Source of the DNA: Actinacidiphila cocklensis
GTDB lineage: Bacteria; Actinomycetota; Actinomycetes; Streptomycetales; Streptomycetaceae
Direction of reading: 5' to 3'
Length of the DNA stretch: 64,000 nt
Assembly: GCF_907177275.1 (NCBI RefSeq)
Contig: NZ_CAJSLV010000024.1
Location: forward strand, 73,296 to 137,295
This document shows positions 30,990 to 34,807 of the stretch, piece by piece. How positions within the stretch are numbered: position 1 is the first letter of the stretch; each line of letters starts with the position of its first letter. The position numbers and the translations under genes are program-made. The notes under the pieces were generated by a model that saw only the letters and a list, made by a program, of their open reading frames with translations, made no database searches and was not told the origin of the DNA.

Positions 30990-31553
30990 TCAGGGGGAAT
31001 CGAGCAGTCCTTCCGCCCTGGCCCAGTCCAGAAAGTCCGAGCCTCCGCAGGGCAGGAACGCCTCCGCGTCACGCAACGCGTCGACGACCGAGCAGGCGTC
31101 CTCCTCCGCGATGAGCTGATTGCGCAGGCCGTGGCACAGGAGGTGCAGCGAGCTGGACATCGATATGCCGTACGCGGTGCCGATGTTCCTGCCCACCCGG
31201 TCGTCGACGACCGCCGTACAGCGGTGCAGCTCGGCGTAGGCCAGCGTGGTGGCCTCTCCGATGTCCTTCATGTCGCGCCGGCTGCCGCCGAGCCGGCCGT
31301 GGAAGGTGGAGAACAGGCTCAGGAAGCGCATCGAGTCGTCGTTCACCACGCTGAGCCATGGCTGGGCGCCGATCATGTGTAAGCGGCTGTTGCGGGACGC
31401 ACCCCGCTGCAGTTCCTCGGCGACTGCCGTGGTGATCAGGCAGGCGCGGTCCTCGACGAGCTTTTCCAGGGTGTCCAGGTGACCGGCACGGGTGAAGTAG
31501 TTCAGCGGTGAGCTGTCGAACACCAGGCTGACGCCGAGACGGTCGGCCGTCAC
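30990..31553 (-). CDS. PIN-domain-like protein, candidate toxin or regulated nuclease
   Basis: The 187-residue protein looks like a PIN-fold ribonuclease. The acidic pattern is VFDSSPLNYFTRAG (Asp13), a Glu in TTAVAEELQRG (about 46), DIGEATTLAYA (about 97-107) and VVDDRVGR (about 117). These would form the metal-binding site. Its GTG start overlaps the stop of the upstream XRE/ImmA-IrrE gene (GTGA), so they form one unit. PIN nucleases with an XRE partner are often toxin-antitoxin modules, and PIN proteins paired with XRE-COG2856 proteins have been noted in genome surveys. At 187 residues it is longer than VapC toxins (about 130), so other roles remain possible. Confidence 0.65.
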   Translation of the reverse strand: MTADRLGVSLVFDSSPLNYFTRAGHLDTLEKLVEDRACLITTAVAEELQRGASRNSRLHMIGAQPWLSVVNDDSMRFLSLFSTFHGRLGGSRRDMKDIGEATTLAYAELHRCTAVVDDRVGRNIGTAYGISMSSSLHLLCHGLRNQLIAEEDACSVVDALRDAEAFLPCGGSDFLDWARAEGLLDSP

Positions 31554-32674
31554 GGCAGGATCTCTCCCAGCTCTCCGCGCAGGGCTTCCAGGGGTACCAC
31601 GTCAGGCTGGCCCAGGTCCTCGCTGCGGAACTGGTCGTCCCTGATGATCTCCAGGGCGCGGGTCGCGGAGATCTTGTGCGTCCGGTACGCGCGGACGGCC
31701 GCCGCTCTGACGCCCGTCGGGACGTGGCCCTCCCCGAGCTCCTCCACCACCCTGACGCCGGCCTCCATGTAGTCGGCCCGGGTGGGCGAGGACCGGTTCA
31801 GGCTGCGCCACTCCTCCTCACTGACCACTTCGTAGCTGCGCAGCTGGCGCAGGGCGGTGGACCAGCTGACCCGGTACTGGACGGCCAGGGTGATGACGGT
31901 CGTGCGCAGGGAGTTCTGACGGCGCAGCTGCCGGAACTCACCGGTCGCGCCGGGCGGGAGGAGGAAGGCCGCGGCGAACGCGTCGACTGCGCGTTCGTGG
32001 GCGCCGGTGTCCACGCCCCAGTCGCTCGAGTACGCGTCGGCCAGGAGGTGGTGGCCGAACTCGTGGGCGAGGGTGGAGCGGCGGCGGCCCGCGTCCACCG
32101 CGCTGTTGACGACGGCGACCCCGAGGTCGCCCAGCGCGGCGTAGCTGCCGTCGACACCCTGCTCCCCGAGGTGGACGGACCAGGTGTACAGACCTGCCTT
32201 CTCCAGGGTGTCCGCCAGACCGTGCAGCGCCTCCCGGGAGTCCGCGCCCACCAGGCGTCGTGCGTCGGTGGCCGTCCTGACGACGGCCGCGGTGTCCTCC
32301 GCGGTGAACGGCTCGACGGGGGAACGGGGGCCGGTGGACCTGATGACCGCGGAGTCGACAAGGGTGCGCAGGTCCCGTACGCAGTCGTCCAGGGCGTGCT
32401 CGCTGGCCTTGTCACTGCGCTGTGCGGGCTCGGCCCGCCTGCTGGCGGCAGCGGCCTCGGGCGGGGTGACGAACCACGACAGGGGCCGGTCGAGCGCCGA
32501 ACCGAGGGCGGCGAGTTCGAGCGAGTTGAGCTGCCTGCGGCCGGTCTCGATCTTGGCCACGGCGAAACGCTCGATGCCGGTGCGCTCGGCCAGTTGCTCC
32601 TGGCTGAGCCCGCGGGCGTTGCGGGCTTCCGCAACTCTGGCGCCTACGTCACTCCACGTCCACTGGTCATCCAC
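31550..32674 (-). CDS. XRE regulator fused to ImmA/IrrE-type zinc peptidase
   Basis: The protein has an N-terminal XRE helix-turn-helix (VGARVAEARNARGLSQEQLAERTGIERFAVAKIETGRR) and a central COG2856/ImmA-IrrE domain with the zinc-peptidase motif HEFGHHLLAD, followed by the Glu-rich helix DAFAAAFLLP. Related proteins cleave repressors (ImmA of ICEBs1) or DdrO (IrrE of Deinococcus). Start: the GTG at 32674 is preferred, with GATATT seven to twelve bases upstream suggesting a leaderless transcript; a TTG at 32692 is the alternative. It overlaps the PIN gene by 4 bp. The combination suggests a repressor or antitoxin with built-in protease control. Confidence 0.78.
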   Translation of the reverse strand: MDDQWTWSDVGARVAEARNARGLSQEQLAERTGIERFAVAKIETGRRQLNSLELAALGSALDRPLSWFVTPPEAAAASRRAEPAQRSDKASEHALDDCVRDLRTLVDSAVIRSTGPRSPVEPFTAEDTAAVVRTATDARRLVGADSREALHGLADTLEKAGLYTWSVHLGEQGVDGSYAALGDLGVAVVNSAVDAGRRRSTLAHEFGHHLLADAYSSDWGVDTGAHERAVDAFAAAFLLPPGATGEFRQLRRQNSLRTTVITLAVQYRVSWSTALRQLRSYEVVSEEEWRSLNRSSPTRADYMEAGVRVVEELGEGHVPTGVRAAAVRAYRTHKISATRALEIIRDDQFRSEDLGQPDVVPLEALRGELGEILP

Positions 32675-32759: not shown

Positions 32760-32789
32760 TTGACGGGTGGGTGGATGCGTCGGTACGCC
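32760..32789 (+). promoter_or_regulatory. promoter of the CBM2 esterase gene
   Basis: TTGACG (32760-32765) and TACGCC (32784-32789) have an 18-bp spacer. The predicted start lies inside the first CebR box, an ideal position for repression. Confidence 0.5.
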
Positions 32790-32791
32790 TA

Positions 32792-32805
32792 TGGGAGCGC
32801 TCCCA
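32792..32805 (+). promoter_or_regulatory. CebR operator box 1
   Basis: TGGGAGCGCTCCCA is the exact 14-bp palindrome bound by CebR, the cellobiose/cellotriose-responsive LacI-type repressor of streptomycetes. It sits 39 bp before the esterase ATG at the predicted transcription start. Confidence 0.88.
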
Positions 32806-32809
32806 TACA

Positions 32810-32823
32810 TCGGAGCGCTCCCC
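32810..32823 (+). promoter_or_regulatory. CebR operator box 2 (imperfect)
   Basis: TCGGAGCGCTCCCC matches the CebR palindrome in 12 of 14 positions and lies 18 bp (centre to centre) from box 1. Two boxes would allow cooperative binding. Confidence 0.6.
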
Positions 32824-32843
32824 CCACCCGGAAGGACCCGGCC

Positions 32844-34013
32844 ATGTCCAGCGAAGCTCAACCCGCCCGGCGCGTACTGCGGGCGCCGAGGTTACTGCTC
32901 GCCCTGCTGCTGCTCGCCTTCGGCGCCGTCGTCGCGGTCGGCGGGGCGCGGTCCGCCGCGGCCGCGCCCCAGGCGGCCGCCGCCGCGCCCGTGCGGATCA
33001 TGCCGCTCGGCGACTCGATCACCGGGTCGCCCGGCTGCTGGCGCGCCCTGCTCTGGAACCAGCTCCAGAACGCCGGCTACACGAACATCGACTTCGTCGG
33101 GACCCTTCCGCCGCAGGGCTGCGGGGTGGCGTACGACGGGGACAACGAGGGGCACGGCGGCATCCTGGCCACCAACATCGCGAACCAGAACCAGCTGCCG
33201 GCCTGGCTTTCGGCGACCACGCCGGACATCGTGCTGATGCACCTCGGGACGAACGACGTGTGGAGCAACATCCCGCCGAGCCAGATCCTGGCCGCCTTCA
33301 CGACGATGGTCGGGCAGATGCGGGCCAGTAACCCGAACATGAAGGTGCTGGTCGCGCAGATCATCCCGATGAACCCGCCGACCTGCCCCGAGTGCGCGCA
33401 GCGCGTGATCGACTTCGACGCGCAGATACCCGCGTGGGCGCAGTCGATCAGCACCGCGCAGTCCCCGGTGACCGTCGTCGACCAGTGGACCGGCTTCGAC
33501 GACGCGACGGACACCGGTGACGGCGTCCACCCGAACGACGCGGGCATCGTGAAGGTGGCGGCGCGCTGGTACCCGCCGCTGGCGGCGCTGCTGACCCCCG
33601 GGTCGGGGACGTCGGCGGGTACGTCCACGGGTACGTCGTCCGGTACGTCCACCGGCACCTCGACGGGTACGTCCAGCGGTACGTCCACGGGTACCTCCAC
33701 CGGCTCGACCGGCGGTACCGGTGGCGGTGCCTGCACCGCCGCGCTCAGCGTCACCAACTCCTGGCAGGGCGGCTACCAGGCCGCCGCCACGGTCACCGCC
33801 GTGAAGGCGCTGACCAGTTGGACGGTGACCCTCACCGGCGTCACGGTCACCCAGGCGTGGAACGGCAGCGTCGTCACCAACCCCGACGGCACCGTCGTCA
33901 TCCACAGCGCCGCCTGGAACGGCACCCTCGCACCCGGCGCCTCGACCACCTTCGGCTTCCTGGCCTCCAGCTCCCCGACCCCGGCGCCGACCGCCACCTG
34001 CTCGACGCCCTGA
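32844..34013 (+). CDS. secreted SGNH esterase with cellulose-binding domain CBM2
   Basis: The 389-residue product has a Sec signal peptide (about 1-41). An SGNH esterase domain follows, with nucleophile Ser58 in MPLGDSIT, block III HLGTNDVW and the C-terminal GDGVHPNDAG holding the catalytic Asp and His. This layout fits carbohydrate esterase family 3 (acetyl xylan esterase). A Gly-Thr-Ser repeat linker (about 254-292) leads to a C-terminal CBM2 with flanking Cys residues (GACTAALSVT and ATCSTP) and conserved Trp. The ATG follows GGAAGGA. The CebR boxes indicate induction by cello-oligosaccharides. Probable role: deacetylating plant cell-wall polysaccharide in cellulose-degrading cultures. 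Confidence 0.88.
   Translation: MSSEAQPARRVLRAPRLLLALLLLAFGAVVAVGGARSAAAAPQAAAAAPVRIMPLGDSITGSPGCWRALLWNQLQNAGYTNIDFVGTLPPQGCGVAYDGDNEGHGGILATNIANQNQLPAWLSATTPDIVLMHLGTNDVWSNIPPSQILAAFTTMVGQMRASNPNMKVLVAQIIPMNPPTCPECAQRVIDFDAQIPAWAQSISTAQSPVTVVDQWTGFDDATDTGDGVHPNDAGIVKVAARWYPPLAALLTPGSGTSAGTSTGTSSGTSTGTSTGTSSGTSTGTSTGSTGGTGGGACTAALSVTNSWQGGYQAAATVTAVKALTSWTVTLTGVTVTQAWNGSVVTNPDGTVVIHSAAWNGTLAPGASTTFGFLASSSPTPAPTATCSTP
33604..33715 (+). repeat. GTS-type coding tandem repeat (linker)
   Basis: The DNA repeats units of ggtacgtcc/ggcacctcg type encoding Gly-Thr-Ser(-Thr/Ser). It encodes the flexible linker between the esterase and CBM2 domains. Unit number may vary between strains by slippage. 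Confidence 0.85.
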
Positions 34014-34087: not shown

Positions 34088-34807
34088 ATGACCTCAGCCA
34101 CCGCGGCCGACTACGCCTGGATACGCACCCCGTCGCTGTTCTCCTTCGCCCGCGACGTCGGCTACGCCGTGACGCTGGTGCGGGGTGCCACGCCCGACGA
34201 GGTGCTGTCGCGGGCGGGCGCCGAGGCGCGGCGGGTGTGCGCAGGGGGCGACGAACTCATCGCCGCGTACTGGGACTTCGCGGAGGAGGGCGGCCTGTAC
34301 GACTCCTCCCTCGTCGGGGCCTTCACGCTGCCGGGCGAGGGCGGGGACTGGACCCTCGTCCTGGAGCTGGGCGGCGACTCGGCCATGACGCCGCGCCTGT
34401 CGGCCGAACTGTCCGCCGGGACGCGGGTCGTCGCGCACACCGGGAACGGGGGCAAGCCCCTGGACTTCTTCCACTGGTACGAGGACGGCGAGCTGCGCAC
34501 GAGCTTCGAGGGTCCGTGGCACAGGACCGGCGCCACCCCCGACGCCCTCAACGCCGACCTGGCCGACCTCGGCTTCGACCCCTTCGGCGACCCGGGCGAC
34601 CCGGCTCCCGACAGAAAGGCGACGGTCCTCGCGCTGACCGAGCGCCTGACCGGCGTCCGGCTCACCGCGGGCACCCTGGCGGCGGCCGACTACGAGGTCG
34701 GCGAGATCCCGGACGAGCCGACCGGGGACTGGAGCCGCGCCGCGGCCGACATCACCGACGCGCACGGCGCCCGCACCTTCGCGCAGTTCCGCATCGACCC
34801 GCTCTGA
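34088..34807 (+). CDS. DUF6461-like protein of unknown function
   Basis: The 239-residue product starts MTSATAADYAWIRTPSLFSFARDVGYAVTLVRGATPDEVLSRAGAEA. The aromatic DYAWI start and VTLVRGATPDEVL segment fit the DUF6461 family common in actinomycetes. It has no signal peptide, membrane span or recognisable catalytic motif. Mid-protein GTRVVAHTGNGGKPLDFFHWYEDGEL is another family-like block. The ATG follows GGAAGGA. It follows the esterase by 75 bp in the same direction, but the CebR context suggests independent regulation. Function unknown. Confidence 0.65.
   Translation: MTSATAADYAWIRTPSLFSFARDVGYAVTLVRGATPDEVLSRAGAEARRVCAGGDELIAAYWDFAEEGGLYDSSLVGAFTLPGEGGDWTLVLELGGDSAMTPRLSAELSAGTRVVAHTGNGGKPLDFFHWYEDGELRTSFEGPWHRTGATPDALNADLADLGFDPFGDPGDPAPDRKATVLALTERLTGVRLTAGTLAAADYEVGEIPDEPTGDWSRAAADITDAHGARTFAQFRIDPL

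What the first reader, a model, noticed from the sequence alone, without database searches (positions are those of the whole stretch)
32760..34013. Cellulose-linked esterase under two CebR-like operators
An exact CebR palindrome TGGGAGCGCTCCCA sits at the predicted start site and a 12/14 match lies 18 bp downstream. The gene encodes a secreted SGNH esterase with CBM2. It would place this esterase in the cellobiose/cellotriose-induced regulon. The double box is stronger than the single boxes typically seen.
Basis: partly seen in the sequence, partly recalled or inferred. Interest (0 to 1): 0.55.

Follow-up and report, generated by a model that had tools for sequence, protein, structure and literature searches.

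The report
Acetyl esterase in the cellulose regulon
A soil bacterium's gene for a secreted, cellulose-binding acetyl esterase carries the standard DNA switch of its cellulose-eating genes, which is a solid but ordinary new member of a known control circuit.

Summary
In detail: an exact CebR palindrome at 32792-32805 and a 12/14 copy at 32810-32823 precede a 389-aa secreted SGNH esterase with CBM2 (32844-34013). Regulon membership is well supported at sequence level. The genome has 21 exact boxes against 0 of the reversed control; 20 of 21 front plant-cell-wall-type genes or cebE beside a LacI-type regulator. The esterase's box is present in 15 of 15 Streptomycetaceae among 80 related loci (14 exact) but 1 of 65 others, and lies 31-45 bp behind a TTGAC in 19 of 20 boxed promoters examined. 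The catalytic domain matches the two solved CE3 acetylesterases. The claim that the double box is stronger is not supported: inexact boxes are barely above background genome-wide, the second copy occurs in 2 of 8 genus orthologues and 0 of 12 other boxed homologues, and it may instead be a 5'-leader hairpin arm, or neutral. Verdict: ordinary, new member of a known regulon; no binding or induction was tested. In passing: another exact CebR box opens a conserved NRPS cluster in 4 of 4 genomes carrying its first gene; in the papers I saw, thaxtomin is the only gene cluster under direct CebR control.

The parts
32760..32765 (+). TTGACG, probable -35 element
   Evidence: TTGAC lies 31-45 bp before the box in 19 of 20 boxed orthologue/homologue promoters; the consensus scan itself reported no promoter
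32784..32789 (+). TACGCC, weak -10 candidate (18-bp spacer); would put the transcription start inside the first box
   Evidence: read; inference
32792..32805 (.). CebR box 1, TGGGAGCGCTCCCA, exact palindrome
   Evidence: 21 exact in genome vs 0 control; conserved in 8 of 8 genus orthologues
32810..32823 (.). second, imperfect box TCGGAGCGCTCCCC (12/14); also the 3' arm of a possible RNA hairpin with box 1
   Evidence: 2 of 8 genus orthologues
32830..32836 (+). GGAAGGA, ribosome-binding site
   Evidence: the same GGAAGGA stands before the start codon in the 8 genus orthologues printed
32844..34013 (+). secreted CE3-like SGNH esterase with C-terminal CBM2, 389 aa (P0001)
32844..32969 (+). probable signal peptide (about residues 1-42)
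   Evidence: sequence reading; no predictor run
32991..33593 (+). SGNH/CE3 catalytic domain (residues 50-250); Ser58 (GDSIT), Gly105 (GHGG), Asn137 (LGTND), Asp226 and His229 (DGVHPN)
   Evidence: these five residues identical in 81 of 81 aligned sequences
33594..33731 (+). Gly/Ser/Thr-rich linker (about residues 251-296)
33732..33992 (+). CBM2 (residues 297-383); Trp307, Trp339, Trp358

Best explanation
The gene encodes a secreted acetylesterase of the CE3 type, tethered to cellulose by a CBM2, that takes acetyl groups off plant cell-wall polysaccharide or oligosaccharide. Its transcription is held off by the LacI-family cellulose repressor CebR bound to the exact palindrome at 32792-32805, over the likely transcription start, and is released when imported cellobiose (or cellotriose) inactivates CebR. 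Shown: the exact box, its genome-wide company, its conservation and promoter position, the domain make-up, intact catalytic residues, and a LacI-type regulator next to cebEFG. Inferred: that this regulator is CebR and binds here, steric blocking, induction, secretion, substrate. The second 12/14 box is at most an accessory feature of two close genomes.
For: 21 exact boxes vs 0 reversed. 20 of the 21 front plant-cell-wall-type genes (GH5, GH6, GH9, GH12, GH44, GH48, GH3, AA10, PL11, Cip1-like, CBM2 proteins) or cebE, and in 18 of 21 the downstream gene has a CBM_2; three of these (L043, L044, L017) have CBM2 but no clear catalytic call. LacI-type regulator with HTH (PF00356) at L023:9455-10489, divergent from cebE/F/G, with boxes between them. 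Box in 15 of 15 Streptomycetaceae (14 exact, 1 with one mismatch) vs 1 of 65 others (one mismatch), the 80 being the best of 157; Fisher 2e-15 without correction for kinship. 8 of 8 genus orthologues at 68% identity or more are boxed, all exact. TTGAC 31-45 bp upstream in 19 of 20. CE3: best solved relatives 5b5s/5b5l 3e-33 and 2vpt 6e-16, named GDSL-2/CE3 in PMC9487903. CebR deletion derepresses cellulases in Streptomyces sp. SirexAA-E (PMC4898821 section 11).
Against: No binding or expression data for this genome. No sigma-70-like promoter by the simple scan. A 43%-identity homologue in G027 has no box. Streptosporangiaceae with 14-19 exact boxes (4 genomes) leave their homologue unboxed, so function of the enzyme does not require this control. 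CebR was named from its place and domains, not by comparison with a characterised CebR; NCBIfam has no CebR hit and gives only below-cut-off LacI-family matches. TTGAC at -28 to -45 is found in only 14 of 22 promoter orientations in this genome, without a control.
Confidence: 0.85

Rival explanations
1. The tandem boxes are two working operators: two repressor dimers bind together and give tighter repression than a single box.
For: A 12/14 copy 4 bp from an exact box; best leader match p=0.003 against 300 shuffles, the lowest value possible; kept letter for letter in the 89%-identity orthologue. Imperfect CebR sites are functional in S. scabies according to PMC5332605 (section 5).
Against: 2 of 8 genus orthologues, 0 of 12 other boxed homologues. 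Inexact boxes genome-wide are near background. Centre spacing 18 bp is about 1.7 helical turns, so the two sites face different sides (inference). Over the 20 other exact sites, leaders are not enriched in box-like sequence (Fisher p=0.13).
Confidence: 0.3
2. The second copy matters as RNA: because each box is its own complement, box 1 and box 2 pair into a strong hairpin at the 5' end of the message that affects stability or translation.
For: Fold of 32790-32846 is -30.3 kcal/mol, z -4.3, 0 of 200 shuffles as good; the A. bryophytorum leader gives -30.6, z -4.3; G030, which has lost the palindrome, still pairs box 1 (z -2.4). With the box held fixed, 20 other leaders of the regulon fold better than shuffles taken together (Fisher p=4e-4).
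Against: Other genus orthologues: z -1.7, -1.0, -0.9, -0.15, +0.6; none of 12 farther homologues has p below 0.19. The arm is invariant as an operator, so no covariation test is possible. If transcription starts inside box 1 the stem is shorter than folded. The Fisher value leans on a few leaders (L037, L045, L030).
Confidence: 0.2
3. The second copy is neutral: a recent local duplication or chance sequence shared by two sister genomes.
For: Narrow distribution; background rate of inexact boxes.
Against: Close spacing to an exact box is unlikely by chance, by my estimate about 0.015 over 21 sites from the density.
Confidence: 0.45
4. The boxes are bound by another LacI-family regulator, not CebR.
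For: LacI-family regulators recognise related palindromes (recalled).
Against: The exact 14-mer is the published CebR/CelR consensus (PMC4898821, PMC5332605), and the exact set in this genome is cellulose-type genes plus cebE.
Confidence: 0.06

Closest known systems
CebR/CelR cellulose regulon of Streptomyces (SirexAA-E, S. griseus, S. scabies)
   Same: Identical 14-bp consensus, similar number of sites (21 here; 18 and 19 in S. scabiei and S. acidiscabies per PMC4898821 section 11), CBM2 cellulases as targets, cebR beside cebEFG
   Different: The CE3-CBM2 esterase is not named as a target in the passages I saw; the supplementary target table of PMC4898821 was not readable here
CE3 acetylesterases TcAE206 (5B5S/5B5L) and CtCes3-1 (2VPT)
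   Same: SGNH fold by sequence (E 3e-33 and 6e-16), GXSXT block I, DFVG...DXD calcium loop, and both cysteines of the TcAE206 disulfide (Cys16/Cys47 align with Cys65/Cys93)
   Different: Bacterial CBM2 instead of the fungal CBM1 or the dockerin; block II is GHGG rather than GXSG; substrate untested
CBM2 of Cex (1EXG)
   Same: Three tryptophans align (307, 339, 358)
   Different: Two short deletions in the alignment; Trp358 is Tyr in 16 of 81 homologues

Membership tests
CebR regulon | 14-bp palindrome TGGGAGCGCTCCCA near the promoter | tested here: met
   exact at 32792; 21 vs 0 control
CebR regulon | operator conserved upstream of orthologues | tested here: met
   8 of 8 genus orthologues, 15 of 15 Streptomycetaceae of 80 loci; 1 of 65 outside
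CebR regulon | genome encodes CebR with a LacI HTH beside cebEFG | tested here: met
   L023:9455-10489 with PF00356, next to an SBP gene and two permease genes; identity to a characterised CebR not tested
CebR regulon | CebR binding and induction by cellobiose | not testable with these tools
   needs EMSA and expression
CE3 / GDSL-2 SGNH esterase | catalytic Ser, Gly, Asn and Asp/His blocks | tested here: met
   Ser58, Gly105, Asn137, Asp226, His229 identical in 81 of 81
CE3 / GDSL-2 SGNH esterase | closest solved relatives are CE3 | tested here: met
   5b5s, 5b5l, 2vpt first three of 9 hits; CE3 status from PMC9487903 passages
CE3 / GDSL-2 SGNH esterase | canonical block II GXSG | tested here: not met
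   GHGG at 103-106; PMC9487903 notes a characterised putative CE3 (SmEst24) that also departs from it
CE3 / GDSL-2 SGNH esterase | acetylesterase activity | not testable with these tools
   -
CBM2 | Pfam CBM_2 above cut-off and three aligned surface Trp | tested here: met
   51 bits vs 24; alignment to 1exg; role of the Trp recalled

The most novel reading that the evidence does not exclude
In this Actinacidiphila-like lineage the cellulose repressor does more than run cellulases: it couples plant-wall attack, including this CE3-CBM2 acetylesterase and a pectin-type PL11-CBM2 lyase, to an undescribed NRPS natural-product cluster whose first gene starts at an exact CebR box. That would be a second gene cluster under direct CebR control beside thaxtomin, in a lineage where none is described in the papers I saw.
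Probability: 0.4. Interest if true: 0.55.

Novelty: new member of a known kind. Interest (0 to 1): 0.25.

Why it matters
It adds a deacetylating, cellulose-anchored enzyme to the set of genes that streptomycetes switch on together when cellobiose arrives, consistent with acetyl groups being removed while cellulose is exposed. The contrast between Streptomycetaceae (boxed) and Streptosporangiaceae (large box sets, esterase unboxed) makes the recruitment of one enzyme into a regulon datable. The NRPS cluster under the same box would matter more: a nutrient signal from plant cell wall directly gating a natural product.

Tried and rejected
Scored the second box by letters alone: 89 sites at up to 2 mismatches against 58 reversed, so rejected as evidence by itself. 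Consensus promoter and terminator scan: nothing found. Leader hairpin as a conserved element: strong in two sister leaders, moderate in one, weak or absent in the other five genus orthologues and in 12 farther homologues; kept only as a rival. In one search the consensus box was folded also for L053 and L064, whose own box has one mismatch. NCBIfam did not name the regulator or the esterase (only below-cut-off hits). Correlation of esterase presence with regulon size: 8 carriers have 16-23 exact boxes, 27 non-carriers a median of 9, p=1e-4, but kinship is not corrected for, and 4 non-carriers have 16 or more (G017 25, G027 21, G024 18, G034 16). Paper searches for the esterase as a CebR target: CebR+GDSL 7 papers, by title none on this subject, listing only; SGNH+CBM2+Streptomyces+cellulose 3, listing only; CebR+esterase+CBM2+Streptomyces 1, passages read, no SGNH target; CE3+acetyl xylan esterase+CBM2 0; CebR+CE3+Streptomyces 0. 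The mBio 2015 CebR paper is not held. No structure prediction was run. Gene starts in the regulon survey come from my own codon-position script and are approximate.

Full report
What is there. Box 1, TGGGAGCGCTCCCA, is exact at 32792-32805; box 2, TCGGAGCGCTCCCC, is at 32810-32823. The gene runs from ATG 32844 to 34013 behind GGAAGGA. The 389-aa product has a signal-like N-terminus, a GDSL/SGNH domain, a Gly/Ser/Thr linker and a CBM2.

Is the box more than chance? In the whole genome (9.14 Mb, 134 contigs) the exact palindrome occurs 21 times and its reversed control 0 times. In 35 genomes of the genus I sum 392 exact boxes against 1 reversed. Inexact boxes are different: at up to 2 mismatches 89 sites, 21 of them exact, stand against 58 reversed, so a 12/14 match by itself says little.

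Who else has the box? I read the genes at all 21 exact sites with a codon-position gene caller and scanned the adjoining genes. The sites front GH9 (two), PL11, AA10, the focal esterase, GH3, GH12 (two), the divergent GH48/GH5 pair, cebE, GH6 (three), GH5 (two more), a Cip1-like protein, GH44, a BNR-repeat CBM2 protein, an expansin-like CBM2 protein (weak NCBIfam match), an fn3-CBM2 protein, and one NRPS operon. Thus 20 of 21 are of plant-cell-wall type or the cello-oligosaccharide transporter, and 18 of 21 have CBM_2 in the downstream gene. A LacI-family gene with an HTH (L023:9455-10489, minus strand) is divergent from cebE with two boxes between them and a third behind it. I name it CebR by place and domains; I did not compare it with a characterised CebR.

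Conservation. Of the best 80 of 157 homologous loci, 15 of 15 Streptomycetaceae have the box (14 exact, L053 with one mismatch) within 600 bp upstream; 1 of 65 others does (L064, a Micromonosporaceae MAG, one mismatch; L080 has a 3-mismatch sequence). In the genus, 8 of 35 genomes have an orthologue at 68% identity or more, all with an exact box; a 43% homologue in G027 has none. Four of these eight are the same genomes as named loci, so there are 20 distinct boxed promoters; TTGAC lies 31-45 bp before the box in 19 of them. On a quick tree the label needs two changes, and the 16 Streptomycetaceae rows group with SH-aLRT 94, below the tool's 95 mark. Four Streptosporangiaceae genomes have 14-19 exact boxes yet their homologues are unboxed, so the esterase seems to have joined the regulon in Streptomycetaceae, or left it elsewhere.

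Promoter. TTGACG at 32760 with a weak TACGCC at 32784 would put the start inside box 1 (inference). The simple scan found no promoter. In this genome 14 of 22 box-promoter orientations have TTGAC at -28 to -45; 8 do not, and no control was run for that count.

The second box. It is kept in the A. bryophytorum orthologue and in none of the other six genus orthologues as a box of up to 3 mismatches; the best leader match in the 12 farther homologues has 6 or more mismatches. Four of 21 exact boxes, this one included, have another box of up to 2 mismatches within 200 bp, at 18, 86, 148 and 166 bp; the GH6 gene of L045 has a 3-mismatch copy 20 bp behind its box. As RNA the two boxes pair into a hairpin (-30.3 kcal/mol, z -4.3). 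That pairing is strong in two leaders, moderate in G030 (z -2.4) and weak or absent in five. I cannot tell operator, hairpin and neutral apart, and rate neutral slightly highest.

The enzyme. The best solved relatives are 5b5s/5b5l and 2vpt, which PMC9487903 (passages) describes as the CE3 enzymes TcAE206 and CtCes3-1. Ser58, Gly105, Asn137, Asp226 and His229 are identical in 81 of 81 aligned sequences. Block II is GHGG, not GXSG. The calcium-loop motif DFVG...DXD is present (F84 is M in 16 of 81). Three CBM2 tryptophans align with 1EXG.

Known or new. PMC4898821 (section 11 and passages) shows that this 14-mer is the CebR site, that cebR deletion derepresses secreted cellulases, and that site number tracks cellulolytic ability. 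PMC5332605 (abstract and section 5) gives the same consensus and says that 14 of 18 S. scabies cellulase genes have at least one perfect site. The esterase is therefore a new member of a known regulon.

An unplanned lead. The one exact box not at a cell-wall-type gene (G000:C124:37907-37920) abuts the start of a SIS/GmhA-like isomerase gene followed by a sugar O-methyltransferase, a condensation-domain protein, a GT2, a HAD phosphatase and NRPS genes. 4 of 35 genus genomes have that first gene, each with an exact box at the same place although the bases after it differ; the first six genes are colinear in the three relatives, while the next, large NRPS gene is colinear in two and not found in G014, and the G004 stretch I fetched ends inside the following gene. 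There the box lies about 80 bp behind a TTGAC and overlaps the start codon region, unlike the other targets. In the passages I saw, PMC12527672 lists only thaxtomin for CebR, and PMC8914351 says that in S. scabiei no other cello-oligosaccharide-responsive cluster seems directly CebR-controlled.

Noticed in passing
L157:9908-9921 and downstream, L158 (G000:C124:37907 on; outside the window): Exact CebR box at the start of a conserved NRPS cluster (SIS isomerase, O-methyltransferase, condensation, GT2, HAD, NRPS, AMP ligase, luciferase-type oxygenase); exact box in 4 of 4 genomes with the first gene, of 35 in the genus.
   Followed up: partly
L160:896-909 (G000:C57:43895; outside the window): One-mismatch box (CGGGAGCGCTCCCA) about 235 bp before a large NRPS gene, with a transposase gene on the other side; 2 of 6 homologous loci have such a box.
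   Followed up: partly
window 33036 and 33120 (codons of Cys65 and Cys93): The cysteine pair that aligns with the TcAE206 disulfide, described in PMC9487903 as absent from other characterised CE3 enzymes, is invariant in 81 of 81 actinobacterial CE3-CBM2 sequences; a second pair, Cys181/Cys184, is invariant too.
   Followed up: partly
L037:4214 (G000:C12:135213): An exact CebR box fronts a PL11-type rhamnogalacturonan lyase with CBM2, so a cellulose signal may gate a pectin enzyme; its leader also folds strongly with the box.
   Followed up: no
L045:4191-4238 (G000:C78): A GH6 promoter has a second, 3-mismatch box 20 bp behind the exact one and a strong leader fold, the nearest parallel to the focal tandem.
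   Followed up: no
window 31550-32659 and 30990-31553, minus strand: Divergent neighbour: HTH plus ImmA/IrrE-type peptidase (M78) gene followed by a 187-aa gene without Pfam match.
   Followed up: no
window 34088-34807, plus strand: Downstream gene encodes a DUF6461 protein; no box at it.
   Followed up: no
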